Below, piece by piece: positions 7,949 through 61,230 of a stretch of 64,000 bases of DNA (position 1 is the first letter of the stretch; each line of letters begins with the position of its first letter). The position numbers and the translations under genes were made by a program. The DNA is from Micractinium sp. NFX-FRZ (Eukaryota > Chlorophyta > Trebouxiophyceae > Chlorellales > Chlorellaceae): assembly GCA_029339195.1 (NCBI GenBank), contig JAPTJF010000264.1, positions 22,364 through 86,363 of the forward strand, given 5' to 3'. Below the pieces are notes generated by a model. The model was not told the DNA's origin, searched no databases, and saw only the letters and a list, made by a program, of their open reading frames with translations.

Positions 7949-10900
7949 CTACTTGGCCATCAGCATCTGCACACGTGACAACGTAGCCAAATAAACGCAA
8001 CAGGCGGGGCACGGGATACAAGGGTCGGGTGGGCAGGACGCACGCCCACGGGTCCAGCGCTGCTGCCCTCCAAAGTGCCGCGCTGCCGGGCCACACAACG
8101 CGTGTCCCATCCCCATCCCTCCAAAACGCTGTCTGTCTTCCATACCCCCCGCCCTGACACCCCCGCGAACACACACACACACACGCACCTTCTGCAGCGT
8201 CATCATGTACTCCAGGTACGCCTGGCTGCCCGCCGCCGCCCCCCGGTCCTCCACCAGGTAGGGCATGAGGTGGGCCTCCATCGGGGTGCCCTGCCGGATC
8301 ACCCAGCACTCCTGCAGAGGAAGGCAGAGTGTGGAGGGGATGTAGGGGGGTGTGGGTGACGTGTGACATGTGAGGCAGGAGGCCGGGCACGGCACGGCGT
8401 CCCCAAGCTAGATCTTGGCACATGTGAGGCTGAGCAAGAAGAGCGGCAATGTGCGTCGTGACCTGCCCCAAGAGACTGCGGGCATGTGTCCACACACGCC
8501 TGCCAAAGCTGATTGAGTGGCCCGGAACGCGCGCACTCTGGCCCCCACCTCCTCCCACCGAACCCCGTGCCCGCTCAACTTCCTCGCCAACCACAGCGCA
8601 CCTGCCAGAGCTCCTTGGTGCCCCGCAGCGCCGCCATCACCGCGTTGATGCGCGCGCTCAGCTCGCTGCCCTGCCGCACCGGCTCAGGGTTCAGGCCTAC
8701 TTTGGGAGGGGGAGAAGGGGCCGAGGAGGGGAGAGGGCCAGGCAGGGGCCGTGGTAAGCAAGGGTGGCAAGCAAGACGACTCTGGCATGCTGGATGAGCA
8801 CAGCAGGCGACGCTTGCACAGCAGCCTCTAACTGGTGACAGGCTGGCGCAATCACCAACCGTACCGTACCATGTGTGCACATCCCCAGGCCCACGACCCC
8901 ATGCGCCCAACAAGCTCCCCGCGCCCCGCTGCACTCACCAGACGCGTCCTGCGGCGGCCCCTGCACACCAAACACCTCGGCGTAGAAGCTGGGGGGCACC
9001 GCCTGGCCCAGCCACATGATCAGCATGCGCCCATTGTCCACGAGGTATGCGCCAGCTGCAGGAATGGGAGAGGAGAGGAGGCGGCGAGTCGGGGGTGCGG
9101 CGGCGTGACGGCAGCGGGGGACGGAAGCGAGGTTCCAAGGCAGCATTCCCTATTCCAGGAAACGCCTCGCACAGCCTCAGCCTGTCTTGTGCACCAAGCA
9201 GGCGTGTCTCCCCAACATCCGCCCCTCCTGTCTGCGCTGAATTACCCTCAAACCAAGGCCGGCAGCGCTTCATGATGTAAACACACACGGCGGTGCGCAC
9301 ACACCTGGGTGAGGACCCCGCAAGCACAAACCCCAGTGCACACCACAAAAACACCACAAAACCTCATGCCCCACCCCTGCCGGCACCTGGGTTGAAGTAC
9401 TCGAGGCCGGCGGGCGCGGTGGGCGGCAGCGCCACGCCGCCGCCTGCGCCCTCCTTGCCCCAGTCGCCCGTCGGGTCGTACACCGGATAGCAGTTGGGGT
9501 AGATGAGGCGCAGCTGATCATAGACGGAGCACGTCACCATCTGGTGCCCCACCGCTGTGCGCTCGTCGCTGTTCACATCGCGCCCGCCGCCGCGCAGGGC
9601 AGACGTCTTCACAAGGCCTGCAAGTGATGCGGGGCATGGCATTGTATCGTGGCAGTCAGGGGCATGTGCGGAGGCGCTGCTCCCGTCGCGCGCGCTGCCG
9701 TGCAGGGCAGCAGTCCTCACGAGCCTGGGGGCGGCCCGGACGTGGCAGGCAGGGCGGGTGGAGCGGGCGATGCACATCACCACGTGCGGCGCCGGTGCAG
9801 CGGAGGTGTCCCAACCCAATCTTAAAACAGTGTTGGTGAAGCACCGATCCATCCATGATGTGTTGTGCCCACCCACCTAGCGTGAGCACGGGCAGGCTCT
9901 TGAGCCGCTCGGGCAGCACCAGCGCGTTGGGCGACAGCCCGCCCGCCATGCCCGCCCCCCGCATATGCAGCATGCGGTACTCCCGCATGGCGGCCACCAG
10001 GCGCTGCTGGATGGCTGCAGGACAAGGGCAGGGAGGATTGAGGCGGGGGGCCAAGGGCAGTGGGGAGTGAGCGCTATCAGCAGGTCAGCAGCAAACGGCG
10101 CACGCCACAGCAAGCGTTAGAACAGGAGGCATGCCATTCCAGGCAGCAGACAGCAGGCACAGGAGCGAGCCCCCCTGTGGCCATGGTGCCGCGCAGCACA
10201 GCATGCAAAGCAGCGTGCCAGGTGTCGCACAGCATGCACAGCGCGCCAGCTCACCGGTGCGCGCGTCGTCCAGCTTGGCCGAGTAGGAGCGCTCCACTGA
10301 CAGCTTGCCCAGCAATGCCGCCGTGGCGCCTGCGTCGCTCTGCTTGTACAAATCGATCAGCTCTGCGTTGGAGGATGGAGAGAAGAGGCGGGGGACATGT
10401 CAAGGCTCAGGTAGGCGGTGTGTGTGCTTGTGTGTGTGTGTGTGTGTGTGCTGGGCAGGCAGGGACAGAATTCCCATGTTTGTCTGCCGGTTGAGATTGC
10501 GCCAGCTGTCGACGTGGCTGCAGGGGGCGGGAGGGCCATCACCCGAGTCCGCAACCCACGAAAAGCGCCCCGCCCCCCGCCCCACCTGACACCACTGGCA
10601 GCGCCATGGTGTGCACCCGGATGCGCCGCTCCCCATTTGAGTTGGTGTAGAGCAGGGCGGCCTGCAGGTAGGCCACCTGCCCCGTCAGCAGCGTCTCCTC
10701 GTGGGCAATCTCCACGGAGAAGGACTGCAGGGCAGGGGAGGGGGAGGCAGGGCGCATTGGGTGGTGCCGATGGAGATATGGCGGGGTTGGGCAATATCCA
10801 CGGAGAAGGACTGCAGCAGGGGGCAGGGGAGGAGGGAGGGAGTTGGGGGGTAGTGGGGCAGTTCGAGGAGCGGCGGGGTCGAGTCCTGGTGGACAAGACA

Positions 10901-13900
10901 GTAATCCCACAAAGGGGAGTGAGGGCGCTTGCCTCCCTCCCGTGTGCTGCTGCTGCAAACACCGGCCCCCACCCGCTGGCCCGTGTTATGTTAATATGTT
11001 ACTAACACAGGCACCTGGCCTGTGCCGAAGGCGGGCACGGCCAGCAGGCCACTTGAGCGTATGCTTAGGCAACCAAACAACGCCTCACCACTGCCCTCGC
11101 ATGCCCCTCCCACACACGCTCAGATCGCGTACGCACACAACACGCAGGTGCACACCCACCTTGTCTGTGTCGCAGGCGGGCAGGGCCAGCAGGTCTGTGG
11201 AGCGGATGAAGAAGTGGCCAAAGAATGCCGAGATGCGGAGGCCCTTGGAGCAGCGGATGCGCATCACCGCCTCCCACGCCGTCTCGCGTGCCAGGTTGTG
11301 GCTGCCAAGTGGGGGAGGGGGGAGGGGGCAGGAAGAGGAGTGGCCGGGCCAGGTGGGTCGCAGGGAAGAATAAGACCCGGGGGGAAACTGCTTGCTGTCG
11401 GCGTCGCTGCCGCACGCACCACCTGCAGCTCTCATGCCCGCCCTACAAGCCCCCACCTGCCCCCTCCGCTCCCCTCCTCTCCTCACCACAGCTCTGCGTG
11501 CAGCTTGGGCCCGTCCCGCTCCGCCACAAAGCCTGGGTAGTAGTACAGCTGGCCGCCCGTGTACTTGGGCAGCGCGCCCAGGGAGGGCAGGTCCATGTAG
11601 GCGGAGCCAAAGGCAAACACGTCGATGCAGATTTGGAACCTGTGCGGGTGAGAAGCGGCACGAAGGGAAAGGCTGAGTGATGAGAACTGGTTGGTGGGAA
11701 GTGTATTCACCACACGGCTTGCACAACAAGTCAATGCGCATCTGGGATCTGCGGGTAGGCGGGGTGTGTGGAGGGAACGGATGGCTTCCATTAGATGTCT
11801 ATGGACCATGGCCAGAAGGTTGCCAATTGAAAATAATCGACGGCAAGTGCATGTCAGAACCCCTAAGCGGGAGAGCTGGGTCCTGCGCCGGGCAGGCGAT
11901 GGGTGGACCACACCTCCACGCTGCCCACCCACACTCCCCCTCTCAATTATATGCCCACCCACCTGGAGGCCTCTGCTGAGAAGCGCTTGTAGAAGGGGTC
12001 GTCGGGGGTGCGCAGGCTGTACTCCCGGTCTGTGCCGTACAGCGCCGGGTTGTCGCGTGCCTTGATGCGGCCGATGCCCACGCTGGGCGCTGCGGCCTGC
12101 ACGGCGAGGGGCGGGGAGGCGAGCGGGCACGGCAGGGGTTGGTGCGCAGCATACCACAACCATTTGGAAGCAGGAGGCCGCCCTCCTCCTGCTGAGCCCT
12201 GCACCACAACACGCAGTCGGTGCGTGCGTCCACCCCTGCCGCCCACCGACCAAGACGCAAAGCAACCACGTGTGACAGCAGGCACCTGGAAGAGCAGCAG
12301 CTTGCCGCCAATGTGGTTCATCACCAAGAAAGCGGCCTGCAGCGCCGGGCCCATCGCGCTCTCCACCTGCAAGACGTGGGTGGGGCAGGGAATAGCAGGG
12401 CAGGGCAGGGCAGGTTGGTGCAGGGCCGGCCTGGGCAGCTGCGCACGAGGTGAGAGCTGTGGGGAAGGAACCAAGTAGCGCGTCATCCCCCCATTGCCAT
12501 CAGCCCGACGTCTCACGCTCCTGAGCATCTCTCCACCCACCTGCGTGGCCCGCCCAAAGCTCTGGGGCAGGGATTCGAGCAGGGCCTCCACCACCGCCCG
12601 GCTCTCGCGCAGGTTCACCATCAGGTCGTCGGGCAGCGGCACAAATGGGTCGTCAATCTGCGGCAGGTGCACAAGTAAAGGGGTGGGTGATGTAGCTGCC
12701 TGGAAGGTTCGCCAGCGGTCGGGCAGGTGCACAAGGGGTCCGTCAATGTGCAGCGTTGCACTAAGACGGAGGTCAAAGGGTGGGGTGGGCCTCCTAAGTG
12801 AGCTCCCAGTGCCAGCTGCCAGCTGCCAGCCCGCCTGCATCCCGTGCCACCCCGCCCCGCCCCAGCCAGCTGCCAGCCCACCGGCATTCCCGCCCCGCCC
12901 TGCCCCGCCCCAGCCGGCAACCCTACTGCACCACAGCATGACACCCATCACAACCGCCCACCCACCCACCTCCGCCACCACCATCATCTGAGGAGAAGAC
13001 AGGCTGCTCTTGAGGTTGTAGAAGTGCAGCGTGCTGCAGCGGGAACGGGGCAGGGGCAGGGTCTCAGGTCAGGTTCTTTGGTGCTGAAATCGGGAGCTGA
13101 GTCCATCTGTAGTGTAAGTTACTGTAGTGCAAGCATGCTGGTGGGCAGGGCGGTGGAGGAGGCGGGGGCCCCGTGCCGCGGGCTGCCAAGTCGCCTGACC
13201 TTGCGCCTGGCACTGTTGTTGGGCTTGCCGTAAAGTCATATGGTGCCCATCCATTCTGCATGCCACCTTCTGCTCACCTGTCGAAAGTGATGAAGGCCAC
13301 CTGGGTGCGCTCGTCGCCGGGCAGGGAGTCGAGGCCGGCTTTGATGGAGGCGCAGGCGGCGCGCAGCATGCCGGAGGAGGCGGCGGCAAAGGAGACGTCG
13401 ATGACAAACACGTAGGTGGGAGGCATGGGGGCGCGCACCTGCGGGGGCAGGGCAATGTGCAGGTGAACACCGACAGATGTCAGAAGCCAGGCGGGTGAGC
13501 GGCGCGAACAACTTGAGCTCCAGAAGAGTCTGAGCCAGCCGCCCGCCTTACCCACTGCACCCAGTGCCTCAAGCTGCCCATGTACAACTTCATCGGCACA
13601 TCACTGGCATCCTGCTCGTCTTCACACCCCCACCCCAGAACACCACAAGGCACACACACTGCGCACGGCCCCCACCCGCCCACTCACCATGTACTCTGCA
13701 GGCGCAATGTACTCCACGCTGCCGCCATACAGCTCCGGCCGCTCGCTGTGGTCCAGCCGCCGCCCCGAGGCGTCCAGTGCACAAAAGTACTCGATGGGCA
13801 CCTCGTTCACCAGCTGGCACACGTTGCACGAGTAGCGCCTGCAGGGGCCGGAAGCGGGATGGGACACAAAAGCGGCACAGCCATGTGTTCAGACGTCCCG

Positions 13901-15526: not shown

Positions 15527-15565
<39 letters not shown>

Positions 15566-16532: not shown

Positions 16533-16723
16533 CGGGGCGCTGCTGATTGATCCAAGCGCCAGGCCTGGCTTTCTTTGGTCTCCGATCCTCGAAACCACGT
16601 GAGCCTGTAAGTTGTCGAGTTGGCATGTCACGCAGTGCACGTGTCTCGTTCTGCGGTCAGCCGCTTGCCGTGAGCAGACCGGGAATCTTGATACTAATCC
16701 CATTCCCGCGCCTTCTACGGCCG
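16533..16723. promoter_or_regulatory. Divergent promoter, SEC24 / Nudix hydrolase
   Basis: Only 191 bp separate the two start codons. Both 5' UTRs and any promoter elements must lie here. No clear TATA box was seen. Confidence 0.6.
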
Positions 16724-22232: not shown

Positions 22233-25200
22233 TCACTCCTCCTTCTTTGCTGCCGCCGCCGCCGCCGCCGCCGCCGCTGCTGCAGGCTGCAATACGGTGG
22301 AGCGCCGCGCGTGCCGCGCGCCCCGCTTCCGCTCATAGTGCCGCAGATAAGCGGTGGACACAAGCTTGAGCATGTACCCCAGCCACAGCTTGACCGCCAG
22401 CAGCAGCAACCAGACCGCCAGCAGGGAGCCAGCGTTGGCTGCCGCAGCCAGAACCCCGCCGGCGCCGCCTGCGCTGCCGCCGCCGCTGTGGCGCAGCGTG
22501 GCAGCTGTGGCGGCTATGCGGAAGGCCAGGGCTGCGGGTCCAAAGGGCTCGAACCCCACCGGCTTGTGTATGTTGTGGCTCTGCGAGGTGGACACGCGGT
22601 CGCACAGGTCCCGCATGTACTCGCGGTACACCCCGGGCCTGCAGGCAGTACAGGTGGCCGGTACGGTGGGGGTCAGAGCCCGCGCAGGGAACCACATCCA
22701 CACATGCGGCCCTGGCTTGCAGGAACACCAGGCAGGGAGTGTGGGGCTGGAGACCAGCTTGCAAAATCGTTGCTCAGTACATGGAAAGCATGGCGGCAGT
22801 AAGAGGCAGCGGAGGCACCCAAGCAGCAGCTGGCTTCCCTCCATCGCAAGCCAATCATCACGTGAACATCGAAGCAAGGCACACACGCTCACCTGATTTC
22901 GTTGAACTTCCCCAGCACCGCATGCTTGATCACATCAATCACCACCTCCCCCGCGTAGATGTGCAGGCACCCAGCCAGCAACGCAGGGTTGGGTGTGCGC
23001 GCGCCGCTGCGGGTGGCACAGGGCGGCAGGGGGAGTGTAGGATGGGGCGGCATTAGGGGTATGGTAGCAGGCAGAGAAGCAGCCGCTGCGTTGCAGTCAT
23101 AACACACGTCACCTGACCATGACTCCCCTCCACAGCACCGGGGTTACGCCTGCGGTGCCTCGTCTGCTCCACCACTTCTCAGGCACCTGCCTGGCACAGC
23201 TGCAGCATGCATCTGGCACCTCGGGGCCGCCCCCCCGCACCCACCCACCTGTTGCCCATCTCCTCCACCACCACGAATGCCAGGATGAGCAGCAGGTGGA
23301 ATCGCTCCACCACATCCTGGCAGGCCAGCGAGAAGAGCTTGGTGGTATCAAATCTTTTAAGCACCGTGCCTGCACGTGGTGAGGAAATGAACGGAGGGGA
23401 AGCAGGGCACTGGCAGGAGTGAGCAGCACTCAGATGTGGTGCTCGCACGCATGGTCCAGCAAGGCCTCAGCTCAGGTACCGTGGCCGCCCCAACAACCGC
23501 CAACCATTGCCCAAGCTCCCCAGCTGTCCGCCCCACCCCATCCCTTGGCGACTTGCAAACCCACACCCACCCTTGATCTCGGTGAAGTTGGCCGCAATGA
23601 GCAGCGCCACCAGCGTGTTCTTCTTGCTGTTCATGGCCACCCCAAACACCATCGCCTGCGCACGAGAAAGGACAGACAAGGGGAGCGTGGGCGGCTGGGT
23701 GGAGGGACGCTAGCAGGTCGCGAGACTAGCTGGGGTGAACGAGTGCATGCCACATGAGGGTGGGCCCGTGCAGCGCCAGCAGCAAGCATGCCGCCGCAAC
23801 ACGTACAACTCGGCGCCACAGCAGCAGGACGAAAGAGCTGCGGGCCGCACAAGTGCTTGGCAGGCAGCAGGGCACAACCAGCAGCAGGCGCCCACCTGGC
23901 ACATCAGGGTGGCGCCATGCAGCGCCAGCAGCAGGCTGGCCACCACGACGTCGCAGGCCAGCGCAAAGGCGGCGCGCCCGCTCCACCCCGCTGCCAGCTG
24001 GGTGCAGGAGGCGGCCAGGGCTTCCAGCACATCCACGCCAAAGGAGCAGCAGATCTGCGGGGGCGGGGTGGCAGGTTTGGGCCGTCAGTCAGGCGGGGGC
24101 TAGAGAGGACTGGTGCGCAGCAGCAGATTTACCAGAGTCAAAGCAGCAGGCTGGGATAAGAACAGGTTGGCCAGTTGGGTGGGGCAGGAAGTAGCTTGGG
24201 CAGCAGTGGGCGCGCTGTGCACGGCCATGCCTGCTCTGTCACGCTTTTGCTGGCCACGTTATGCTGTGCTGTACTGGGTTGCACTGTACTGCTTACCTTG
24301 TCGCTCAGCTCGAGTGCGGTGTACAGCACAGACAGCTTGAGCAGCTCCTGGGTCAAATCCTGCGCCAGGGGACAGGGGACGGATGCATGGGCATGGGTGG
24401 AACGCTGGCCGTGACCGCGTCGGTCACACGGCTGCCAACTGTCCTGCATGCCTTACAGACTGAGTGCAGTCACCCCTTTCATCAAAAACGAAGTGGTTGG
24501 CGACCTTAATTCCCCCACACGCCACTTCCCTCACCTTCATCCAGAAGTAGAGGGTGCCAGCGTTGAGGTTCCACAGGAACAGCACCACCCCCACCGACAT
24601 GGCAGCACCCAGCAGGTCAAACAGCTGGTCGCCCCGCAGGTTGACCGCCCGCCGCCGCCGCAACTGACGCCGCGGCTGTTGAGCTGGATGCTGCCTCTGT
24701 TGCTGCTCCTGCTGCTCGCCGCCGCTGCTGCCCTCGGAAGGGCCACGTGCTGCTCCTGGCGCAGATCCTGCTGGTGCTGCTGCTGCTGCTGCTGCATCTG
24801 GCTCTGTGCTGTCTTCCGCGCTGGACAGCAGGCCACGGCCGAGCGCCAGCAGCGCCAGGCCCACGCGCAGTGGCAGAAGCGTGAAGATGGCCTGGGAAGG
24901 GGCGGGGTGGGGGCGTTGCAGGTTACGGAGGCACGAGCCACAGCTGCTGAGCAGGCTGGTTGGGGCACTGGGAGAGGGGAGATGGGTGCCGTGCCCACCT
25001 CACAACCAATGACCCCTTGTGCCCGCCTGACCGCTCCCACTTCCCCATTTCTGATGCAGTGCCAACACCCGACCCTCCCCCGGAACAGCTCACCAGAAAC
25101 GAGTCCAGGCAGATGACCAGCCCAAAACAGATGAAGCGCTCCAGCTGATAGGGCACCGCCACCAGCGCATTGTACACTCTGTCCCGCTCCGTCTGCCCCC

Positions 25201-26588: not shown

Positions 26589-28973
26589 ATGCAGCAAGTC
26601 ACTCTCCAGCGCGGCGGCGCGCCACCCGCCGCGGCTTGCGGTCGCTGCAGCCGCTCCACGAGTGTGACCAAATGCGCTACCAGCCGGCTGGGGCGCGTGG
26701 CGGCCAAGGCGCCGACCCACTGCCGCCGCCTCCGCCTGCTGGCCCCGCAGGTGCGGCCACGCACTACATGCAGCCTGCCGCCTCTTGCCTGCCATGATGC
26801 CAATACCACTGCAGTATGGTGTGGACAGACATAGTAGCTTCCAGCCTCTCCACCCTGCTGCCGCCCTCCCGCTGGCCACGCATCCTGTCTGACGCCACCA
26901 CCCCCGCTCCCTTCCCTCGCTGCCTCTGGCCCTCGGGCGCCCGTTCCGCTGCAGGCGTCCGCCTCCCCTGCATCGCCCGCTCCCCAGCACGACCCTCAGG
27001 AGCTGGTTGAGCTGAAGATGGCGCTGCTGGACTCCTTCTGGGGCACCGAACGCGGGCTGACGGCCAGCAGCGACAGCCGGGCTGAGATCAACGAGCTCAT
27101 CACGCAGGTAACATGACCGCTGGTAGGGCATTAGTAGTACGTTTGGGCGACTTGGGGCTGGTGACGGCCAGCAGCAACAGCCAGGCTGACGAGGCAAGAT
27201 GTGTTTTGTGGTTTGGACCGAGCTGTTGGTTGTGAACATTAGTACACGTGTGCAGCTGTGACCTGGCGGGTGCTGCTGAGCAAAGGCCGCTGCAGCCGGC
27301 TGTGCCCTGCTGTGCCCCTGCAGCTGGAGGCGTGCAGCCCCAGTGCCCGAGCCCGACAAGGCCTCGCTGTGCTGTGCATGCCGTGACCATGCTCCGCCCT
27401 GCTGCGCCCCTGCTGTGCAGCTGGAGGCGCGCAACCCTACGCCCGAGCCCAACGACGCCCGCACCGCCCTGGGCGGCACCTGGCGCCTGGCCTACACCTC
27501 CAACTCGGAGCTCATCGCCCTGCTGGCGCTGGCGCGGCTGCCGCTGGTGACGGTGGGGGAGATCACGCAGACGATTGACCCGCTGGGCATGACGGTGGAG
27601 AACACAGTGGAGCTGGAGGCGCCCCTGAGGTGGGCCGGCACAAGCTGTGCTGTCTCATTTGCTTGTGCGTCACCTGGGTGTGGCAAGGTGCTGGGCTGGG
27701 GATGACGGTGGGTAACGGGTTACAGTCGGAGGCACCGCTGAGGTGAGCCGGCAGCTGTTTGGGTTGCTGGTGGAAAGCAGCTTGCAGTGTGGCCTGCATG
27801 GCGCGGCAGCAAGCACCCGCTGACGTCAGCAGCGGCGGCAGCGGCGCAGCTGTCCTGCTTGCCACGCATGGGTGAGGCAAGGTGCTTGGCTGGGCATGAT
27901 GGTGGGGAGCAGGATGGAGCTGCTCACACTGCCCATGCTGCCAGCCTCTCACCTCGCTCCTGCCCCCTGGCAGCAAACTCCACCGAGCGAGACCCGCTCC
28001 TGTGGCCCTCCCGCCCCTGCCCTCACTTTGTGTTATCTCCACATCCGTGCCCCCTGTGCCCCCTGCTGCAGCAAGACCGCTCTGAGCGCGACCGCCTCCT
28101 TCGAGGTCCGCTCTCCCAAGCTGCTGCAAGTGAAGTTTGAGGAGGGGCGGGTGGCCACCCCGCAGCTGCTGGCTGACCTGGCGCTGCCCTCCAGCCTGGA
28201 GCTGCTGGGGCAGCAGATCGACCTGGCGCCGCTGCAGGTGAGGAGGGCGGGGGGAGGGAGGGGGGGAGTTTGAACAGGGGCAGTGGGAGGGACCCCCAGG
28301 GAGGGACAGCAGTGCGGCTGGGCGCCCCTGCAGGTCGGGGCGGGGGGGCGGAAGCGGGGTTCAGCGAAGGGCAGATGACGGCTCCCAAGGAGGGGCAACA
28401 GAACTGTTTGGCGCCCCGGCAGGTGGAGGTGTCCGCCCGCCCCCGCCCTTACTACTTTCTAAGCGCTGCCCCCCTCCCCTGCCACCCCCCCCCCCCCGCG
28501 TGAGCCTGCAGGCCGCGCTGCAGCCGGTGGAGGGCCCGCTGCGCAGCGCGCTAGGCGCGCTGAGCGGCCTGCTGTCCAGCGTGCCCGACCTGCGCATCCC
28601 GCTGGGCTCCACCCCCACAGCTTCCTCCTGGCTCCTCAACACTTACCTGGACGACGGCCTGCGCATCACACGCGGCGACGGAGGCTCCGTGTTTGTGCTG
28701 GTTCGTGAGGGGCACGAGGGCGGCAGCAGCCTGAATGCCACCACCGGAGCCGCCATGGGCACCAGGGATTGGGAGGCCCTGGAGGAGCGGGACCCCGTCG
28801 CCAGCTCAGCAGGTGGCGCCACGTCACCGCTGGCAGCTGTCATGATGGAGGCTGCCACCTCATCAGAGCCCACTGTGGTTGTGGTGGAGCCCTCTGCCGT
28901 GATTGAGGAGGGCCAGGGCCCGGCAAGCAGCAACGGCAGCACCAGCAACAACAACGGCAGCGCTCCCATGTGA
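26589..28973 (+). CDS. Plastid lipid-associated protein (PAP/fibrillin family)
   Basis: Exons 26589-26750, 26955-27107, 27421-27629, 28072-28237 and 28512-28973 give 383 residues. The first exon is a plausible chloroplast transit peptide: rich in Arg, Ala, Ser and Thr, with no acidic residues. The fibrillin domain starts with ELVELKMALLDSFWGTERGL and includes LGGTWRLAYTSNSEL, FEVRSPKLLQVKFEEGRV, and the C-terminal half WLLNTYLDDGLRITRGDGG then SVFVLVRE. Fibrillins sit on plastoglobules and thylakoids and bind lipids. The C-terminal 80 residues are low-complexity. Introns 2, 3 and 4 contain direct copies of the neighbouring exon edges. Confidence 0.93.
27154..27193 (+). repeat. Intronic echo of fibrillin exon 2
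   Basis: Direct copy of exon sequence 27054-27086, sharing ACGGCCAGCAGC and the following CAGCC/GGCTGA pattern. It lies 100 bp downstream in intron 2. Confidence 0.85.
27315..27360 (+). repeat. Intronic echo of fibrillin exon 3 start
   Basis: Copy of 27415-27460, including the acceptor CAG and CTGGAGGCG. It creates a decoy acceptor 97 bp upstream of the true one; its frame does not encode the fibrillin sequence cleanly. Confidence 0.85.
27722..27757 (+). repeat. Intronic echo of fibrillin exon 3 end
   Basis: Copy of 27607-27647, including the donor GAG|GTGAGC (exon: GAG|GTGGGC) and the following GGCAGCTG. Confidence 0.85.
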
Positions 28974-45721: not shown

Positions 45722-48700
45722 GAGGCAAATGTCTCCTCGCCCTGCCGGCTCTGCAAAGCCAGAGAAGGGGAAGGGCCGCTGAGCAGGCAGGCGGGCAGGT
45801 GATGTGGTGTACACATGCTGTGTTGTCGGATGGCAAGAGGACGAGGCAGGCAGTGCAGGCAGGTAGGCCAGACGGCGCTGTGCACCCCTGGGCAGCAACT
45901 GTACATACTTGCTTTGCCTGCACCCACCGCACCCCACCCCACCACCATCTGGACCCCATCAACCCAACCGAAGCTGTGCTCTGGCAGTTCTGCTCAGCCT
46001 GCAAAACCGCGGCGTGCCCTAAGGTTGTGCTGAACACCGAAGGCCCAACAAACTTGCACCCAGCAACGCACCCTGTGCTTTTACTCAACCCGGGCTGCAA
46101 ACAGCGGCTGGCCGCAGTGCTCGCCACTGCCTGACCCCACCCCACCACAAGACTCCAACTAGAGTTGTACCCACGCCCACCTTGTGCTTGAACAGCTCCG
46201 CCCGGTCTGCAAAGAGCGGCTTGTCGTAGAGGTTGTACGAGTCCTCCGCCCCCATGCCCGCGCCCCCCAGCCCCGTGTCCTGGTTGAACAGCCGCTGGTC
46301 GTACATCGCCTCGCCGCCGGTGACCTGCAGCCAGGAAGAGGGAGGGCGGGGAGCAGAGGAGGCAAGGAAAGAGGATGTGAGGGTGTCCTGGTTGAACAGG
46401 CACCGTTCGTATGGCCGCGGGCGCACACGCACACGCACGCACACAAGCGCACACACGCACACACATCATGTCCCGCCACCTCCTTGGAGACCCACCTTGG
46501 CCATGCCCAGCGCAATCTTTTCGGAAATGTCGCGGTCGCGGTCGCGCGTCAGCTTGCTCTTCTTGAAGCCGTGAGCCTCGCGCGACTCCAGGCGCCGCTC
46601 GCGCTCACGCTCCCTGCAGGCAGGAGGCACGCGGGTGCATGCGGTTGCGGGCAGGAGGGTCAGAAGGGTGGGGCGCAACGCAGGCAGAGCCGAAGTATCG
46701 CCAGCAGCGTCATCAACACAGAGCCGCTGTGCAGGACAGCTCTCGGCTGCCACTCGGCTGGCAGCACGCCCTCCATATAGCAGCAGGGCTGCACCGACGG
46801 GGCCCTCAACCTCTGCCCAGCGTTGCCACACACCAGCTTGATGTACTGCCCTGCTGTCTCTCCTTCAGCAGCACCTCGTCCGCTGCTCCCTGCCTCAGCT
46901 CTTCAAAGCTCTTCAGCCCTCTCCCCAAACCCGGGCAGCCCCCCACCTGCGCCGCTCCTCGCGGATCTCCTCCCGCTTGCGCCGCTCCTCCCGCTCCGCC
47001 TTGCTCTCCCGCTCCTTGTCGCGATCCTCCCGCAGGCCCCTGTCCCGAGCATAGTCCTCCTCAAACTCCTCCCGCCGCTTGTCCCCACGCCCGCCGCCAC
47101 CCCGCCGGGGTGCCTCCTCGTCTGACGACACGTCCATGTCGCGCCCGCCGCCCGCTGCCGCTGCGGGCACGCGGCCCTCGCCGCGCGCCGCCGCCACGGG
47201 CGCCGCCGCCGCTGCAGCCGCCCCAGCTGGCGCGCCGTCCATGCGCTCTGAACACGGTGGGGCAGAGCATGGGGGCGGGCAGGTGAGCATGGGGGCTGTG
47301 CGCGGCAGGCAGTGCGAAAGGCACGATGCCCTTGCTGCGTCCGAGTACACTCGCCAGCTGTCAACTACCTCACAGAGCTGCTGCGCAGCTGCTGAGCTGC
47401 AAGGCTGCTGTGCACTTGCAGAAGAGCAGCAGGCCCCCACTTCCACACTCCCTGCCCCACGGCTTCCAACTGTGCTGCCCACACCACCTGCTGCTCCTGT
47501 CCCACCCACCCGACGCCACCATGCATCTCACACCTCCTACATGTCCATGTGCGCTTTCAAGCACCAGCTCACGCAGCTCCCCCTTCCGCACCCCCCATAG
47601 ATACATTCATTCATTCCCAGATACCAGCTCCATCTGTGCTATGCATACGCGCACACACGCGCCCCACCCACCTGCCACTCCCCCCATGCGGTCCATGCGC
47701 GCCTTGAGCGCCAGCTCCCGCAGCTCCCGCTCCTTGCGCTCCTTCTCCCGCGCCAGCAGCTCGCGCTGCATCTTGCTGCGCGCCTCCACCGCCGACCGCG
47801 CCTTCTGCTCAGCAATGTACAGCGCCTCTGTGAACTTGGCAAACTGGTCGTTGATGGCCACCTCCTGCAGGCCGCGCCCGTCCGCCGCCAGGCGCTTGTC
47901 CAGGGGGATTGTGTAGCCCTGCAGGGAGGGTGGTGGTGGGTGGTGGCGGGGGAGGCGGCGAGGGTGAGCTTGGTGCGAGGTGGGGCGGGGGGCGTCGAGA
48001 CGAGGCCGGGTGCAGGTGGCACCGGCGCTGGGCAGGGCAGGCCCAGGCTGCAGGCGCTGAGCCGCTGGTGGAGCACCGGCACACAGGCAGACCTCATCTG
48101 TGTTTGATGCCCACCAATCTGCAGCGACGACCCGCCCTGCCACGCCCAGCCTCGTCCCACCCCGCCGGCAACACAACCCACCCCGGCTGCCCCGCCCTGC
48201 CCAGCCAGCGCCCCGGCCGTCCCCGCCCACCTTGCTGTTCTTCCAGTTGGAGATGCAGGGCGGGATCTTCCAGTCCTGCTGGTCCTTGACCGTCATGGGG
48301 CGCGGCGGGGAGTGCATCACCGGCACAGGCGGCGACCCGGGCCCGCGTGGCACCTGCACACACGTGGTGGGGAGGTGGGGCAGGGCGGCAGCGATTAGAC
48401 TAGTAGCCCCCACGCCCATGCCCTCACACAACCCCCTACACACACTCATGGAGCAGGCTTAGCTGGCAGTAGGGCAGGCAGCAGTGGGGCTGGCTGTCAG
48501 TGAGGCTGGCGGCAGTATGGTACCCCCGCTCCCTCCCTGGACCTTGGTATGGTACCCACCCTCCATCCGGCCATTCCTCCCGCCCTAAACGACACGTTAA
48601 ACCAACACGCACTTTTACAGCTCGGAACTTGGGCGGTTCTAGTGGGTCTATCGGCATGTCCTGCATCTTGATGATGCGGCTGCCGGCCCCGCTGGCATGC

Positions 48701-52570: not shown

Positions 52571-52575
52571 TGTAA
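52571..52575 (+). terminator. Candidate poly(A) signal TGTAA of YIPF
   Basis: TGTAA 78 bases after the YIPF stop codon. Confidence 0.6.
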
Positions 52576-52968
52576 GGATGGGGCACCGCCTCCTCCCTCG
52601 CCTGTAGCCTCATGCATTACACACAAAAGAATGGTAAATAGCAGGTAGCAGCTGGAAGCATGGCTAGTAGCGTGGGGGTGGTGGGTCTGGAGCGCTGGCT
52701 CAAGCCAGAATGAAAGCCGGGAGCGGACAAAAGGCGGCAGGGTGGGGGGGCCACAGAAGTGCAGTGCAGCAAGGGGCAACCTGAGAGGGGAGAAGCATGG
52801 AAGGGCATGTGCAGAGAGGGATGGAGCGGTACAGCAAACAAACAGAGAGGAAGCACGGAATGGGGCTCGTACGGTGCGGGAAAAAAAGGGGTGCGCGATG
52901 CGGGCTGCGTCAGCAGCAGGCGGCTGGAGAAGGTTGGGGGCTCAGTGTCGGGTACAGCTAGGGGGCGG

Positions 52969-52973
52969 TTACA
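52969..52973 (-). terminator. Candidate poly(A) signal TGTAA of SAL1
   Basis: Minus-strand TGTAA, about 145 bases after the SAL1 stop codon. Confidence 0.5.
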
Positions 52974-53115
52974 GAAAGGCTTGTTTGGGCGCATGGGCGA
53001 CAGGGTGGGAAAGGCAGCCCGGAGGCTCACCTGAGTGAGGCGTCAAAAGCGTTGGTTTTGAATAGAGGCGGGCAAGGCAGGCCTGGTGCCAGGGGCGTTG
53101 AAACCTGCCGGTACC

Positions 53116-56100
53116 CTACGCTGCCGGCGCCTGCTCACGTGCACGGATGGTTGCCAGGGCCTTCATGATTGCGGCGTGCATGCTGGGGGTGGCTGCCACG
53201 ATGCCCCCGTTGAGGAAGGGGAAGAAGCGGCCCAGGGTGAAGTCCAGCGGGTTGCCCAGGGCATCAGTAATGACTGCGCCCGCCTCCTGCGCGGAGGGAG
53301 GGCAGCGGGCACGGGCGGGGGCAGGGGGCAGGCAGGGCAGGCGGTGAGCAGGGGGGCAGCCGCGCAAGGGTGGGCGCTGCCCTGGGCACTGCCCGCGCCC
53401 GTTCATCTTCCTCCCTTGCCATGCCTGGCCCAGCCGGCAGGGGGACGCCTCCCCGCATACATGCCTCCTTCCCGCTCCTCCTCCCGCTGCCCCCCCGAAT
53501 GCAGAATGACCCCTCCCGGTGGCACGGCCCCATCTCTTATCCACAACACCTCCCCATGTTCCAGCCACCTCGCCTCCCCCCTCTCACCCCTGCCTGCAAA
53601 CCATAGCCCTCCCTACCTGCAGGATGATCACTCCGGCGGCATGGTCCCAGATCTTCTCGCGGTAGCTGGGGTCGGGGAAGCGCATGAAGATGGAGGCGTC
53701 GCCGCGGGACAGCGCGCCTGCACGGCGGGACCGGAGGGTAAGGTGGGGAAGGGTTGAGGGAAAGAGTGCGGGAGTGAGGGACGGAGGGGAGGCATTGCCA
53801 CTGGGCAGGGCGCCTGCAGGGTTGCGTTACAGGCAGGGCTTTGACGCTGATAACGAGTGAGGAGGGGGTACTAGGCGACGAGCCCGGCCTGGGCAGGCGC
53901 TTGGTAGGCATGGCGGGGCGTGGCAGGCGGGGTGGGACTAGAGAGAGGGCGAAGAGCAGCCGCAGGTGAGGGTGGCACGGCTAGCTGCAACCGGTGTGTT
54001 GTGCTTTGCATGTGCCCAGCAGCGCTCACCATACTTGGCCTGGCTGTCCAGCCGCAGGGAGGACCGCACAATTCCCACCTCGGCTGCAGGCAGGGACGGA
54101 AGAGGGGCAGACGGTAAGGCTCAGCCATGCCAGCGCAGCATGCGGGTGGAGCAAGCGCTCAAGGAGAGAGCAAAGGTAAAGCACGGCGCCGTCCCTGCTG
54201 GCTGGGCCTTGTGCAGCCCAGGGCACTGGTCCTTCCCCTGCCCGCAATGCTCCCTCCCGGCCACATTGCCCCCCACCAGAAATGCACTCTGTGCCCCAGG
54301 GACCCCACTGCACCACATCACCTCGCCCTACCCCCCTGGCTCGGATGCGTCGCCGCCCATTGGCCACCCCACACCACCAACCAGGCTGCTGGGCAGCCCG
54401 CCCTACCTCCGATGGCCTGAGCCAGGCCGTGGTTTGAGTGCCGCGCCTCAAACGACTCCATGTACCGCACCTGCAGTACAGCCAGCCAGGCGGTACAGTC
54501 AGTGGCCGGCCGGCATGCAGGCAGCAAACAATGGCACGAGTGCAGGGAGGTGGCATGTACAGCGCAGCACAAGCCTAGCACCAGCACGCCTGGTCCATGG
54601 GCAGGGCGTTGTGGTGGTAGAAGCACTGGGTGGGGCAGCGCAGCACAGCACAGCACAGCACAGCACAGCGCAGCGCAGCGCAGCACAGCACAGCACTGCA
54701 CAGCACAGCGCAGCGCAGCACAGCACAGCACAGCGCACCTGGTCCATGGGCAGTGAGTCGTTGCAGAAGATGCGCTCGGTGGGCATCCCGTTGAACAGAG
54801 GGCCCGAGTAGGCGCCCTGCAGTGGAGGGAGGGCATGGGAGGGCCAAAGCAGGCAGGCAGCTAATCAGTGTTGAGGGGCCAGTCGCGGTTGTGAAACATG
54901 TCGTGGTCAATCTTTGAAATCTCAGCTCATTCACTCTTCTAAGGAAAGTGTTGCTTTAACTTGACCAGTGGCGAAGCAGAGGCAGAAGGCAGCACAGTCG
55001 GGCGCCGTGACCGGGCAGCGTTGGTTTCGCCTGAGCGGTGCTCATGCAGACGCACCCATGTGCCGCACGTGTGGATCAAGTGCTGCTCTCACCTGCCCCT
55101 TGGCAGCCACAAACATGGTGCCCACGGTCTCATCCGAGAAGGAGCGCCCCGCCTGCCCCTCGTCGCAGTCCTCCTCGCTGATGGCGTACTGGGGCAGGTT
55201 GGGGCAGCCCAGCACGCCCAGCACCACCTGCCGGCGGGCGGGTGGGGGGTGAGGAAAGGGCAAGATGAGGTGAGTGTGGTGGGGTTACATGAGGTTGCAT
55301 GAGGTGCGCGAGGTTGCATAGGGTGGCCAGGTGGGAGGAGAGGCCCAGACCGCAATCACACATGTCCACACCTCAACCCCTCATGGCGCCGCCCCACTCT
55401 TCGCACCACAACCTCTCCCTGCTGCAGCAGCATGCCCAGGCAGGCAGCGTACAATTCATGCCCACAAAGCCGCCGCCCCTGGAATGCATCACACAAGCTG
55501 CCACCCACCTCTCCCTCCTGCAGCATGCCCAGGCAGACGGCGTACTGCCGCATGCCCACAAAGCCGCGCGTGCCGTCGATTGGGTCCAGCACCCAGTGCC
55601 GCCCCACGCCGCCGCCCTCGCTGTTGCCGGTGTCAATGAGGTCCAGAATCTCCTCGGGTGTGAGGTGAGCCTCCTGCAGGTGTGATCAATAACCAACATC
55701 AAACATCGATGACTCAAAGGAATGGCAGGGGCCAAGGAGACAGGCGGTGGTGCGTCTAAAACAAAGGGCCGCATGCTGTTGGCAGGTACAACGGGTGATC
55801 TCAAGGCATCTCCAGCCCAGCAGCCCTCCCGCCGGCCCGCCCTCCCAGCAGTCCACCACCTCCAGCAGCACGCTCAGCAGCCCACCACCAATCCCAGCTC
55901 CCTGTCCCCACCCCCCCACCTGGGGATACTCCTGTGCCAGCGCTGCATTCACATACTGCGTGATCCCCGCCAGCATGACCGCCCCCTCTGGCTCCCGCAG
56001 CTCCTCGGCCGCCTCCTCAGCCACCAGGCTGATCGCCTGCCCCGCCAGCGAGTGGCGCAGGCTCCAGGCCACAAGCGCCTGGGCGCCGTAGTCGGCAATG

Positions 56101-56960: not shown

Positions 56961-57198
56961 GCTGTGGTTGGTAAATGAAATGTGCTCAGTCGGCGACACT
57001 TATTCCACGCTGCCCCGCTCAACGCCGCCCTTCTCCCGCTGAGCTGCCAGCTCGGCGAGGCCATGCTGTGCACGACGCGCGAGGGTAGTCGCCTGCAGGG
57101 GTGAACCCGAAGCCCCAAGGGCCCTCCTGATCGATCAGGGAGTCAGGGCGGTGCACAGGCACAAGGGCAAGGCTCCCACCGACTGGCACCGCGAAAAT
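56961..57198. promoter_or_regulatory. Divergent promoter, SAL1 / MPP-alpha
   Basis: 238 bp between start codons of two organelle-targeted proteins. No TATA box was identified. Confidence 0.55.
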
Positions 57199-60100
57199 AT
57201 GCAGGCCTCCCGGGCCCTGGAGCAGCTGGCCGCTCGGGCCTTCAGCACTAGTGCTGCTGTGCAGGCAGCAGTGCCCGCAGTGGCCGCAAAGCGCGGGTTC
57301 CTGGCCCAGCTCCTCGGGTCTGGCTCGCGCATCGACGTGCCTCTGACGGACGCCCTGCCGGGTGTGGTCATCCCAGATGCCATCCCCGCGCCTACCACCG
57401 CCCCCACGACCCAGCTGACCCAGCTGGCCAATGGAATGACCATTGCGACGGAAAACACGCCGGGCTCAGTAGGTTTCGGGGGACATGAGGCACGCGGATG
57501 TCAACCCTGATGGGCCGGGGAGCGCGCGGGCCTCAAGGGTTGTGCCGCCGCTGCCACTGGCCCGCCTGTTTGCAGGGCGCCACCGCCACTCTGGGCATCT
57601 ACATTGACAGCGGCAGCGTCTACGAGAGCCCCGCCACCACAGGTGCAACTGCAGCTGTAATTGCGCAGTCTGTGATGTGCAGCAAGGAGGGGCCGGGCTG
57701 CAGCGGCAGGCAGCCAACTTTGGTTGTCCCCAGCAGTCATTGCAGCGGTCCTGGCGGTGATAGAGAGCGATCGACTGAGCTGGTGCTGCCTCCCTGCATG
57801 CACTTGCTCTCTCCAATGCCTTGTGTCGCAGCCGCTGCCATGTAGGGTCACCTGCAGCACCCGACCGCTGCCCGCTGCTTCACCCTGCCCGACTGCCTGC
57901 ATGCCTGCCGGTGCGTGCTGTGCATTGCAAACCTTTCCATTTCAATGCCCTTCACGTTTCACTGCCAGGCGTGTCCCACCTGCTGGAGTACATGGCCTTC
58001 AAGACCACCAAGTCGCGCACCCACCTGCGCCTGGTGCGGGAGGTGGAGGCCATGGGCGGCAATGTGCTGGCATCAGGTGCGCAGGGCAAGAGGGGCAGGG
58101 GGTAGCGGGCAGGTGGGGCGGGGGAGGCGGAAGCTGCGATGCAAGTGCACAGTGACTGGCTTGCCGGCAGTCGTACGGCTGGATGTGCCAATTGTTTCGC
58201 CAGCGTGCCTGCTGTGGTCTGGGTGTGCCAGAGCGAGGGGGCAGCACGCGCAGGCCCGACGGACCGGCATGCGTCCCATGTCTCAAATCAGGCAGCGGCG
58301 GCAACAACAGCAAAGCGCTGCCGCACTGCACCAGGCACTGCCAGCCGCAGCAGCCTGCGTTGACAGGCTCAGCCGGCTGCGGTGCAGGCAGCAGCAGCAG
58401 CAGCAAAGCTGAGTTGCGGCCTGTCTGGCTGCCCCCACCTGCCGACCCCTGCCTTCCCAACTGCCACCCCCTGCCGTCCAAGCCTGGCTCTTGCAGCCTC
58501 CCGCAGGCAAATGTGGGTGACCAGCGCACTCAAAGCGCTATCCCTCTGTCTGGCCCCTGCAGCCTCCCGCGAGCAGATGGCGTACAACATTGACACCAGC
58601 AAGGCCACGGTGCCCGAGGCGCTGGAGCTGCTGGCCGACGCCGTGCTGAACCCCAAGTTCCAGTCGTGGGAGGTGGCGGAGCAGGTGGGGACAAGAGGGC
58701 GGGGGTGGGCAGGTCGGGTTGAGATGAGTCGAGGTTGAGGTGAGAAAGATGTTGCGGGAGGTGGCGGAGCAGGTGAGGGCGAGCAGGTTAGGAAGTCGGA
58801 AGGAGATGCCTGCCAGGGTGGTGGCCACGGTACTGCGTGGCGGAGGGCGGTGTGGAGAAGCCCAAGGACACCGGTTTGTAGCACGGACGGTTGAAGGGCA
58901 ACCCATTCCCAGCACCGACGGCAACAGTTCAACAACTCTCATCTGTGCCTTCATTTCTTGGTGCACACACACACATTTCTCAGCACTGACGCCACCAATT
59001 CAACAAATTTGTTGAAACTTCATTTCTGCCTTCATTTCGGCGTGGTGTGCAGATCCGCAAGATGGAGGCGGACGTGAAGAACCTGAAGGACAACCCGCAG
59101 ACCACGCTGCTGGAGGGCCTGCACTCTGTGGCCTACAGCGGCGGGCTGGGCCGCCCCCTCATCGTCCCCGACGGCTGCCTGGGCGGCCTGAACGCGGGTG
59201 CGTGCGTTGGTAGGGGTGGGGGCGGGCAGGCGCAGCAGCAGCTCCTCTCCGTTGCCCCCTGTTGCTCACTCTTGCTCTCACTTCCCCAGGAAGACGCGCT
59301 GCCTGACTTGTATGCCTCAACAAGCTGGCCTTTTTTACCCTCCTCCGCTTTCACCCAACTCACCGCTCTTTGCATGTTCTGCGCCCCCCACCCCCTGCCC
59401 TGGTCTACTCCCACAGACGTGCTGGCCGAGTTCTACGCCGCCAATTACACCGCCCCCCGCATGGTGCTGGCGGGCGCGGGCGTCGACCACGCGGAGCTCG
59501 TGCGCCTGGCGGAGCCCCTGCTGGCGGGCGCCCCCACCGCCGCGGGCGCCGCTGGCGAGCCGGGCTCCTCCTACGTCGGCGGCGACTGGCGCCAGTTCAG
59601 CGCCTCCCCGCTGACTCACGCCATCCTGGCATTTGAGTACCAGGTGCGGGCTTGGGACCTGCATGTATCATGTCCTTGGCTTGTGTGATGAGCGAGGCAA
59701 TTGTCCTGTCGTTGCCGCATCCTGACGCGGCATCCCATGATGGGGCGACCGCCAGCGTTGCTACGAGACGCGGCGCCGGGCAGTTAGATGCTCTTTTGAT
59801 GATCATGCTGCTGTGATGTTTGACCTTCTTCTGCCCCACCTCTTCCTTGATCGTCTGCAGGGCGGCTGGCGCGACGTGAAGGGCAGCGTGGCCATGACGG
59901 TGCTGCAGTACCTGCTGGGCGGCGGCGGCTCCTTCTCCGCGGGTGCGCCGCTGCCTGCACGGCTGTGGGGGACAGGGGGCTGCCCTGGCATCACAGCGCA
60001 GCACGACATGCACCGATTTCACGCCCAGGGGCGCATTCTTTTGAACTGCAGCACAGCTGCCTCCCAGAAGTGCAACAGTCTCTGCCCTCATCCCACAATG

Positions 60101-61230
60101 TCTCAAGCCCGCCTCCCCTGCCCCCGCCCTGCCTCCCCCCCCCCCCCCCCCCCCCCCCCCCCCAGGCGGCCCCGGCAAGGGCATGCACTCCCGCCTGTAC
60201 ACCCGCGTGCTCAACGCGCACCCCTGGATGCACAACTGCACCGCCCTCAACTCCATCTACAACTCCACCGGCCTGGTGGGCATCTTTGCGTCGGCGGAGA
60301 GCGGCCAGGCGGGGGACATGGTCGACGTGCTGTGCTCCGAGATGCTGGTGAGCGGGCAGGCGGGTGGGGGGGCGGCAAGTGTGGGCTGCCTGCTGTGTAG
60401 AGCATTGACCTGAGAGGTTGAGAGGCTAGTATCCTGGGTGTGCCGTGCTCCGAGATGCTGGTGAGGAGGGGGCCCTGCTGTGTAGGGTCTGGTAGGTCTT
60501 GCGGTGGAGCGGGAGATTGAGGGGATGATACGTTGGGCCTGCTATCTTTGCCAGCATTGTCAAGGGCCTGAGTACCGCATGGCCCCGGTTGTCCCTGCCT
60601 TAGCGTGCCGGCTGCCGAGCTAGCGCACCGTTCATCCGCCCATGTGCCCCATTGCAACCTTTGACTGCTCCACTGCTGTGGGCGCCTCCCTCCCATCACA
60701 CAGGCCGTGGCCAAGGGCGTGCCCGAGCCTGAGCTGGAGCGCGCCAAGGCGGCGGCCGTGAGCAGCGTGCTGATGAACCTGGAGAGCCGCGCGGTGGTGG
60801 CGGAGGACATTGGGCGCCAGGTGCTCACCTACGGCCACAGGTGCGTGCGCAGGCAGAGAGAGAGGGCGAACCACGCGTGGGGTGGTGGCAGTGGCAGGAG
60901 GCCCTGGGGACGGGCAGGCGGTGGCAGGGGGGATATCGGCCTGCCAGGTGCCAACCTCCGGCCACAGTTGCATGTGAGGAGGGCGATGGCTCGTCACTGT
61001 GACGGGTATCTTGTTGGAACGAAGCTGTTTTTTTCTTGCTGATGTGTGCGTTTGGTTGTGTGTTGTGCAGGAAGCCGGTGGGCGAGTTTGTCAAGGAGAT
61101 CCGCGGGCTCAAGGCCTCCGACCTGAGCGCCGCCGTGACCAAGCTGCTCAAGACGCCGCCCTCCATGGCTGTGCTGGGAGACATCGCGCACGTGCCGCGC
61201 TACGATCAGGTGGCCAAGCGCTTTGGCTGA
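57199..61230 (+). CDS. MPPA: Mitochondrial processing peptidase, alpha subunit
   Basis: Exons 57199-57468, 57576-57642, 57969-58076, 58563-58684, 59053-59197, 59417-59643, 59861-59942, 60166-60347, 60704-60840 and 61071-61230 give 499 residues. The N-terminus is a mitochondrial presequence (Arg, Ala, Ser; no acidic cluster). The M16 fold follows. In place of the HxxEH zinc site of catalytic subunits it has HLLEY at 116-120, so it is non-catalytic. The hallmark Gly-rich loop is present at 333-346 (GGGGSFSAGGPGKG). Alpha-MPP binds presequences and works with beta-MPP, which in plants is part of complex III. The start is the first true ATG in the open exon. Introns 3, 4, 8 and 9 hold exon echoes. 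Confidence 0.96.
58488..58513 (+). repeat. Intronic echo of MPP-alpha exon 4 start
   Basis: Copy of 58555-58579: TGCAGCCTCCCGCAGG against TGCAGCCTCCCGCGAG. It gives a decoy acceptor 67 bp upstream of the true one. Confidence 0.85.
58751..58780 (+). repeat. Intronic echo of MPP-alpha exon 4 end
   Basis: Copy of 58663-58693, sharing GGGAGGTGGCGGAGCAGGTG, including the donor. Confidence 0.88.
60135..60163 (+). repeat. 29-C homopolymer directly before a splice acceptor
   Basis: Twenty-nine C residues run straight into the AG at 60164-60165 that starts MPP-alpha exon 8. Confidence 0.9.
60435..60469 (+). repeat. Intronic echo of MPP-alpha exon 8 end
   Basis: Copy of 60322-60356, sharing GTGCTCCGAGATGCTGGTGA, including the donor. 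Confidence 0.9.
60943..60975 (+). repeat. Intronic echo of MPP-alpha exon 9 end
   Basis: Copy of 60818-60850, sharing CCAGGTGC and CGGCCACAG; the donor has decayed to CAGTTGCATG. Confidence 0.75.

What the first reader, a model, noticed from the sequence alone, without database searches (positions are those of the whole stretch)
9567..60975. Recurrent 'exon echoes': degenerate direct copies of exon edges inside the adjacent introns
In seven of 16 genes the intron beside an exon carries a same-orientation copy of that exon's edge, 25 to 65 bp long and typically 60 to 150 bp away. The copies often include the acceptor CAG or donor GGTG. I find about 17 cases: SEC24 three, TAPT1 one, fibrillin at least three, bystin three, SNW one, SAL1 two, MPP-alpha four. 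The copies have drifted, and most no longer splice in frame. Unrelated genes showing the same pattern points to a genome-wide process, such as frequent small tandem duplication across junctions, that lengthens introns and seeds decoy or alternative exons.
Basis: partly seen in the sequence, partly recalled or inferred. Interest (0 to 1): 0.88.

Follow-up and report, generated by a model that had tools for sequence, protein, structure and literature searches.

The report
Decayed exon-edge copies inside introns
In this green-alga-like genome a good share of the introns sampled carry a worn, same-direction copy of the edge of the neighbouring exon, splice site often included, about 100 bases away: most likely leftovers of repeated small duplications across exon-intron borders that lengthen introns and then drift without evident function.

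Summary
In 344 kb of this genome 93 of 1180 exon edges match their adjacent intron at 26 bits or more; controls give 0 of 5849 (other genes), 2 of 3168 (same gene, non-adjacent), 0 of 1180 (reverse complement), 0 of 1180 (shuffled); the held-out part alone gives 34 of 246. 86 of 617 introns carry an echo and are longer, 359 against 230 bp. Echoes drift much like neutral sequence and derive from unspliced template. Best reading: recurrent tandem duplication, about 100 bp, across splice junctions, tolerated because one intact splice site remains, then decay; a young array (about 77 intron + 30 exon bp, 98-100% identical) shows it. Unexplained: a 1.7- to 5-fold junction bias, exonic parts never above 70 bp, and too little similarity between the intronic parts of the youngest units. 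No evidence for decoy or alternative exons; no RNA data.

The parts
9675..9723 (-). SEC24 acceptor echo of exon edge 9567-9615, lag 108, id 0.80
10788..10851 (-). SEC24 acceptor echo of 10702-10765, lag 86, id 0.75 ungapped
11006..11084 (-). SEC24 donor echo of 11151-11229, lag 145, id 0.73 (same intron as the previous one)
12718..12754 (-). SEC24 acceptor echo of 12628-12664, lag 90, id 0.78
23748..23800 (-). TAPT1 donor echo of 23897-23949, lag 149, id 0.79
27162..27189 (+). Fibrillin donor echo of 27058-27085, lag 104, id 0.93
27319..27342 (+). Fibrillin acceptor echo of 27416-27439, lag 97, id 0.88 (weak, 26.0 bits)
27695..27753 (+). Fibrillin donor echo of 27582-27640, lag 113, id 0.76
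27889..27922 (+). Fibrillin second donor echo of 27582-27615, lag 307, id 0.82
33363..33396 (+). Bystin donor echo of 33286-33319, lag 77, id 0.82
33475..33518 (+). Bystin second donor echo of 33274-33317, lag 201, id 0.80
35404..35434 (+). Bystin acceptor echo of 35499-35529, lag 95, id 0.94
46084..46121 (-). SNW donor echo of 46196-46233, lag 112, id 0.76
46383..46411 (-). SNW acceptor echo of 46275-46303, lag 108, id 0.86
47560..47584 (-). SNW donor echo of 47707-47731, lag 147, id 0.88 (weak, 26.9 bits; source lies 35 bp from the junction)
53788..53821 (-). SAL1 acceptor echo of 53692-53725, lag 96, id 0.79 (weak, 26.5 bits)
54592..54631 (-). SAL1 donor echo of 54741-54780, lag 149, id 0.75
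55422..55452 (-). SAL1 donor echo of 55515-55545, lag 93, id 0.87
58484..58513 (+). MPP-alpha acceptor echo of 58550-58579, lag 66, id 0.83 (weak, 28.0 bits)
58751..58783 (+). MPP-alpha donor echo of 58663-58695, lag 88, id 0.85
60431..60465 (+). MPP-alpha donor echo of 60318-60352, lag 113, id 0.83
60943..60974 (+). MPP-alpha donor echo of 60816-60847, lag 127, id 0.84

Best explanation
Exon echoes are remnants of recurrent, short-range tandem duplications (84 of 115 lags lie between 60 and 159 bp) that straddle an exon-intron junction. A donor unit is [20-60 bp of exon end + donor + intron head]; an acceptor unit is [intron tail + TGCAG + 20-60 bp of exon start]. Because the outer copy keeps a complete splice site next to the real exon, the inner copy simply becomes intron, the intron grows by one unit, and the inner copy then drifts. 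The exon copy is held by selection, so the exon-derived part stays recognisable longest. Shown: the copies, their orientation, adjacency and excess; longer echo introns; roughly even mismatches over codon positions; unspliced template; one young tandem array and one young 60-bp pair. Inferred: DNA break repair with fill-in synthesis (patch-mediated or Pol alpha-primase type) as the cause, and a moderate preference for splice junctions, possibly because both intron ends are strongly strand-asymmetric (G-rich heads, C-rich tails).
For: Excess only for adjacent introns in direct orientation, held-out set included. Lag spectrum confined to short range. Median lag 109 bp; 67 acceptor, 48 donor copies. 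Young array at L022:647-1747, unit about 107 bp = about 77 intron + 30 exon bp read by eye, copies 98-100% identical; young 60-bp pair with an 8-bp spacer at T1 4570-4697, id 0.97. The spacer still resembles the intron side of the unit: 33 of 74 at 16 bits or more (null 5-6%) and 18 of 74 at 20 (null under 1%) in window + S0-S9; 31% of 70 at 18 bits against 1%; 25 of 78 at p<=0.05. Mismatch rates over codon positions 1-3 are 140/941, 171/947, 179/935; echo donors keep GT in 25 of 48 (GC in 10 more), acceptors AG in 42 of 67. Beyond the echo's junction the sequence resembles the intron in 95, the neighbouring exon in 12, ties 8, of 115. Echo introns 359 against 230 bp, p 1e-18. GC skew about +0.25 in intron heads, -0.3 to -0.55 in tails.
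Against: For the 13 most similar echoes scored (exon-echo id >=0.9) the intronic unit parts fall below the 5th percentile of a neutral tandem simulation in 13 of 13. Observed copies are shorter (38 bp) than simulated (60-74 bp); 0 of 115 have more than 70 exonic bp where 10-14% are predicted; intron-only duplications of lag >=50 are too few: 20 independent ones (42 counting all) against 95 junction sides (115 pairs), where 0.46-0.78 per junction event is predicted. Against a strong junction preference: rotating the annotation gives 70.7 +- 8.2 exon-intron pairs against 117 observed, only 1.65-fold, and intron-intron pairs are not depleted, 43 against 51.0 +- 8.8. First codon positions mismatch slightly less than the other two. 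In multi-copy introns the nearest copy is not regularly the most similar. No relative, reads or RNA were available.
Confidence: 0.6

Rival explanations
1. Uniform random small tandem duplication over the whole genome plus survivorship: junction copies are merely the ones that stay visible, because exon copies do not drift and exonic duplications are purged.
For: One-sided decay must exist; the rotation test gives only a 1.65-fold excess of exon-intron pairs and no lack of intron-intron pairs; a population of only very old events gives a high junction ratio in simulation (divergence 0.30 and above).
Against: With ages weighted to fit the observed identities, the simulation misses the junction ratio, the length and the exon ceiling, even with intron DNA decaying 3 times faster; events old enough for the ratio have identities near 0.71, observed median 0.85. 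Intergenic pairs are depleted, 12 against 47.4 +- 11.0.
Confidence: 0.2
2. Copying of the exon edge alone: a 25-60 bp stretch of exon edge plus splice consensus is inserted into the adjacent intron, for instance by RNA- or DNA-templated break repair with unspliced pre-mRNA or the lariat-exon intermediate as template.
For: Fall of identity within 5-10 bp of intron (donors 0.73, 0.51, 0.34 in successive 5-bp bins; acceptors 0.73, 0.54, 0.49). Young echoes without similarity in the intronic unit part, such as T3 16563-16593, id 0.93-0.94, 8.1 bits against 11.4 in the null. Unspliced template. Echo rate rises weakly with codon bias, rho 0.31, p 0.008.
Against: Intronic unit parts are still similar in about a third of cases; even S9 2363-2418, which looks abrupt, keeps 35 bits there against 11 in the null; the youngest array is a full tandem unit; no inverted copies, which end-joining with templated inserts would be expected to give as well.
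Confidence: 0.15
3. Functional decoys or alternative splice sites maintained by selection.
For: Many echoes still hold AG or GT.
Against: Splice dinucleotides are kept no better than the rest of the copy, there is no coding pattern of change, lags are random modulo 3.
Confidence: 0.03
4. Assembly artefact, chance or low complexity.
For: The assembly is fragmented (838 contigs) and the T0 array contains an N run.
Against: Median identity is 0.85 and only 10% of pairs reach 0.95; 0 of 5849 control matches at the same score with simple repeats masked.
Confidence: 0.02

Closest known systems
Tandem genomic duplication across an intron-exon boundary (potato RdRp intron gain, PMC4974935; passages seen)
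   Same: The duplicated unit holds the 3' part of an intron and the 5' part of the next exon; the upstream exonic copy ends up inside an intron.
   Different: There a single event created a new intron with an activated cryptic donor. Here existing introns seem to grow, at both ends, in 86 of 617 introns sampled.
[quoted passage not shown] not held; known here only through passages of PMC4974935 and PMC3443670)
   Same: Frequent duplications inside genes, some including whole introns or splice sites.
   Different: As cited there it concerns new or multiplied introns; ours are decayed edge copies in existing introns. I could not compare the data.
Small tandem duplications at breaks with complementary overhangs, CST/Pol alpha-primase (PMC8355091; passages seen); patch-mediated repair in rice and paired-nick repair in Arabidopsis (recalled; seen only in the text and reference list of PMC7464560)
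   Same: Direct, short-range tandem copies.
   Different: The passages seen do not tie the process to splice junctions; the repair step was not tested here.
Direct repeats near splice sites (Rogers and Bendich 2025, PMC11782384; abstract and passages seen)
   Same: Direct repeats at intron borders.
   Different: They report 4-30 bp repeats, mean 11.4, from comparing the surroundings of the 5' and 3' borders; here copies are about 38 bp, of one junction, about 109 bp apart.
Introner elements and transposon-derived introns (PMC9860276; search listing only)
   Same: Many introns affected.
   Different: No shared element found: spacers do not form a family and three echo-intron queries match only their own intron.

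Membership tests
Tandem duplication across an intron-exon boundary | Direct-orientation copy next to its source | tested here: met
   93 of 1180 adjacent edges, 0 of 1180 reverse complement
Tandem duplication across an intron-exon boundary | Copied stretch crosses the splice junction | tested here: met
   87 of 115 segments cross it; 28 stop short of it
Tandem duplication across an intron-exon boundary | The whole unit (copy plus spacer) is duplicated | tested here: inconclusive
   T0 array yes; 25 of 78 at p<=0.05; 13 of 13 most similar echoes weaker than simulated
Tandem duplication across an intron-exon boundary | Absent in the outgroup (derived state) | not testable with these tools
   No relatives of this genome are held
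Introner or transposon insertion with target-site duplication | Inserted element belongs to a dispersed family | tested here: not met
   2625 spacer comparisons in window + S0-S9, best 30 bits, no null run; three queries of 86 echo introns match nothing outside their own intron, though that search skips very common words
Tandem exon duplication | Whole exon with both splice sites copied | tested here: not met
   0 of 115 echo copies have more than 70 exonic bp; 38 exon-exon and 10 mixed pairs were not examined for this
Retro-copy of spliced mRNA | Copy runs over an exon-exon junction | tested here: not met
   95 of 115 continue as intron, 12 as neighbouring exon, 8 ties
Pol alpha-primase or patch-mediated break repair | Dependence on the named repair proteins | not testable with these tools
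   Needs mutants

The most novel reading that the evidence does not exclude
Splice junctions themselves are duplication hotspots in this genome: a transcription- or splicing-linked lesion at the strand-asymmetric intron ends is repaired by copying a stretch of limited reach (rarely more than about 60 bp into the exon, about 70 bp into the intron), so that introns grow from both ends by stuttering their own exon edges.
Probability: 0.35. Interest if true: 0.82.

Novelty: new variant of a known kind. Interest (0 to 1): 0.62.

Why it matters
Intron growth in compact genomes is commonly ascribed to transposons (recalled). Here about one sampled intron in seven (86 of 617) carries the visible trace of what looks like a junction duplication, so growth can be read event by event with the exon as a fixed reference. 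If junctions are truly preferred, it would link transcription or splicing to local genome instability and make that link testable by strain comparison.

Tried and rejected
Chance, low complexity, motif similarity: rejected by the four controls. Inverted copies: no excess there. Plain tandem duplication with full-unit similarity: tested by simulation, not adequate alone. Dispersed insert with long target-site duplication: spacers are not a family. Coding or splice-site constraint on echoes: not seen, apart from slightly fewer mismatches at first codon positions. Spliced-RNA template: rejected. Expression link: only a weak codon-bias correlation, rho 0.31, p 0.008, over 70 genes, with stronger correlations to intron number (0.34) and intron length (0.40). 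(unit borders by free alignment) let some alignments slip onto other repeats, as its negative exon lengths show; I use it only for single cases read by eye. Gene models were over-split and those joined neighbouring genes; both were replaced. Rows dropped: introns under 100 bp (590 of 617 used), 18 of 95 junction sides not usable and 7 more with short spacers (70 scored), 17 of 95 (78 scored), 3 of 118 exon-intron pairs whose source is not an adjacent exon. Searches cover window + S0-S9 only. Literature: seven searches; among the titles and abstract openings listed (12 to 20 per search where more were found, out of 1 to 74 papers) I saw none that describes this pattern in a green alga. The library holds open-licence papers only; Gao and Lynch 2009, Vaughn and Bennetzen 2014 and Schiml 2016 are not held.
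Full report
WHAT WAS CHECKED. The window is C264:22364-86363 of a 66.07-Mb, 838-contig genome, GC about 65%. The gene set and composition suggest a green alga; I did not establish the species. I fetched ten scaffolds of 20 kb (S0-S9) and later four more as a held-out set (T0-T3), 344 kb in all with the window. I trained a gene finder on the window and S0-S9: 67 genes, 550 exons, median intron 242 bp in complete genes, donor CAG|GTGAG, acceptor TGCAG|G; 16 genes lie in the window. T0-T3 were predicted without retraining. Bystin (residues 27-430) and MPP-alpha (11-498) align to solved homologues, and SEC24, SAL1, SNW, TAPT1 and fibrillin have the expected Pfam families, so the exon edges in the named genes are credible. 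Gene models elsewhere were not checked against homologues.

Twenty-two exon-edge/adjacent-intron pairs reach 26 bits in the window, in 18 of 108 introns and in exactly the seven named genes. Other-gene introns give 0 of 5849, same-gene non-adjacent introns 2 of 3168, reverse complement 0 of 1180, dinucleotide-shuffled 0 of 1180. In window + S0-S9 direct repeats are confined to short range: 163 pairs of 28 bits or more at lags 30-330 against 14, 14, 1 and 12 in four more distant bands.

EXTENT AND ANATOMY. In 344 kb there are 115 pairs in 86 of 617 introns and 36 of 83 intron-bearing genes; 67 are acceptor and 48 donor copies. The median lag is 109 bp, ungapped length 38 bp, identity 0.85. Of 67 acceptor lags 46 lie between 86 and 128 bp; donor lags spread from 51 to 307, with one at 25. 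Echo introns are longer, 359 against 230 bp (p 1e-18). Frequency is uneven: 11 of 34 introns in T0, 0 of 56 in S3; over-dispersion between genes p 1.7e-4. The clearest case is L022:647-1747. Its acceptor end holds copies, 98-100% identical, of a unit of about 107 bp, read by eye as about 77 bp of intron tail plus the first 30 bp of the exon, while its donor end holds three older copies of the upstream exon's end at lags 98, 191 and 296.

FATE. Mismatch rates between exon and echo are roughly even over codon positions (140/941, 171/947, 179/935, slightly lower at the first); echo donors keep GT in 25 of 48 (GC in 10 more), acceptors AG in 42 of 67, no better than the copy as a whole; lags modulo 3 are 35/38/42. 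I read this as drift of a non-functional copy. No RNA data were available.

ORIGIN. The sequence beyond the echo's junction resembles the intron, not the neighbouring exon (95 against 12, 8 ties, of 115), so the template is unspliced. Spacers do not form a repeat family in window + S0-S9, and three queries from echo introns match nothing outside their own intron (3 of 86 echo introns tried). The intronic part of the supposed tandem unit is still similar in 25 of 78 cases at p<=0.05. This favours tandem duplication across the junction followed by faster loss of likeness in the part where both copies are free to change.

WHAT DOES NOT FIT. A simulation of random tandem duplication with neutral, one-sided against two-sided decay, weighted to reproduce the observed identities, predicts 0.78 intron-only events per junction event (0.46 if intron DNA decays 3 times faster). 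Observed at lags of 50 or more are 10 intron-only pairs in echo-free introns plus 32 in echo introns, of which 22 overlap an echo and 10 are independent: 20 against 95 junction sides, or 42 against 115 pairs, 0.21-0.37. The simulation also predicts copies of 60-74 bp (observed 38) and 10-14% with more than 70 exonic bp (observed 0 of 115). For 13 of 13 of the most similar echoes scored, the intronic parts are weaker than the simulation's 5th percentile; for all 70 scored this holds for 57%. A simpler control is milder: rotating the annotation 500 times gives 70.7 +- 8.2 exon-intron pairs against 117 observed (0 of 500 reach it), intron-intron 51.0 +- 8.8 against 43, exon-exon 42.8 +- 7.4 against 40, and pairs touching intergenic DNA 47.4 +- 11.0 against 12. 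So the process is intragenic, and biased towards junctions by a factor between about 1.7 and 5 depending on the control. Intron ends are strand-asymmetric over about the span of the intronic part of the unit (median 68 bp): GC skew about +0.25 between 10 and 40 bp from the donor, -0.3 to -0.55 between 70 and 10 bp before the acceptor. Whether this localises breaks is speculation; echo and other introns do not differ significantly in it (p 0.06 heads, 0.96 tails).

CALIBRATION FROM PARALOGS. Two tandem paralogs in S3 (96% protein identity, no echoes) show patchy homogenisation and uneven, partly very fast intron divergence: introns 4 and 7 are identical, 5, 8, 10 and 11 align at 0.77-0.90, while intron 12 (and 13, where the two gene models differ) is unalignable although fourfold sites of exons 12 and 13 differ at only 5 of 49. 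Fast intron turnover can therefore explain some of the missing intronic similarity, but the simulation with 3-fold faster intron decay still falls short.

VERDICT. Real, not confined to the window, non-functional as far as can be seen, and a variant of a known kind: tandem duplication across splice junctions, as described singly for a potato gene (PMC4974935, passages seen). What seems new is the frequency, the growth of existing introns from both ends, and an unexplained preference and reach around the junction.

Noticed in passing
window 267-2498, minus strand: Open frame of a protein made of about 27-residue leucine/glutamine-rich repeats (81-bp direct repeats over some 1.8 kb, id about 0.73).
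   Followed up: no
L008-L009 (S3): genes at 848-4751 and 13208-17035 of the joined 20 kb: Tandem paralogs with some introns 100% identical and others unalignable next to conserved exons, suggesting patchy gene conversion and fast intron turnover.
   Followed up: partly
L022:647-1747: Array of about 107-bp junction units, 98-100% identical, with an N run inside (assembly gap or withheld stretch, not known); possibly variable in copy number.
   Followed up: partly
introns of 200 bp or more in 344 kb: Strong strand asymmetry of intron ends: G-rich first ~60 bp, C-rich last ~80 bp.
   Followed up: partly
introns without echoes in 344 kb: Short-period intronic direct repeats (lags 20-59 bp) form a separate class: 27 of 35 intron-only pairs there.
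   Followed up: no
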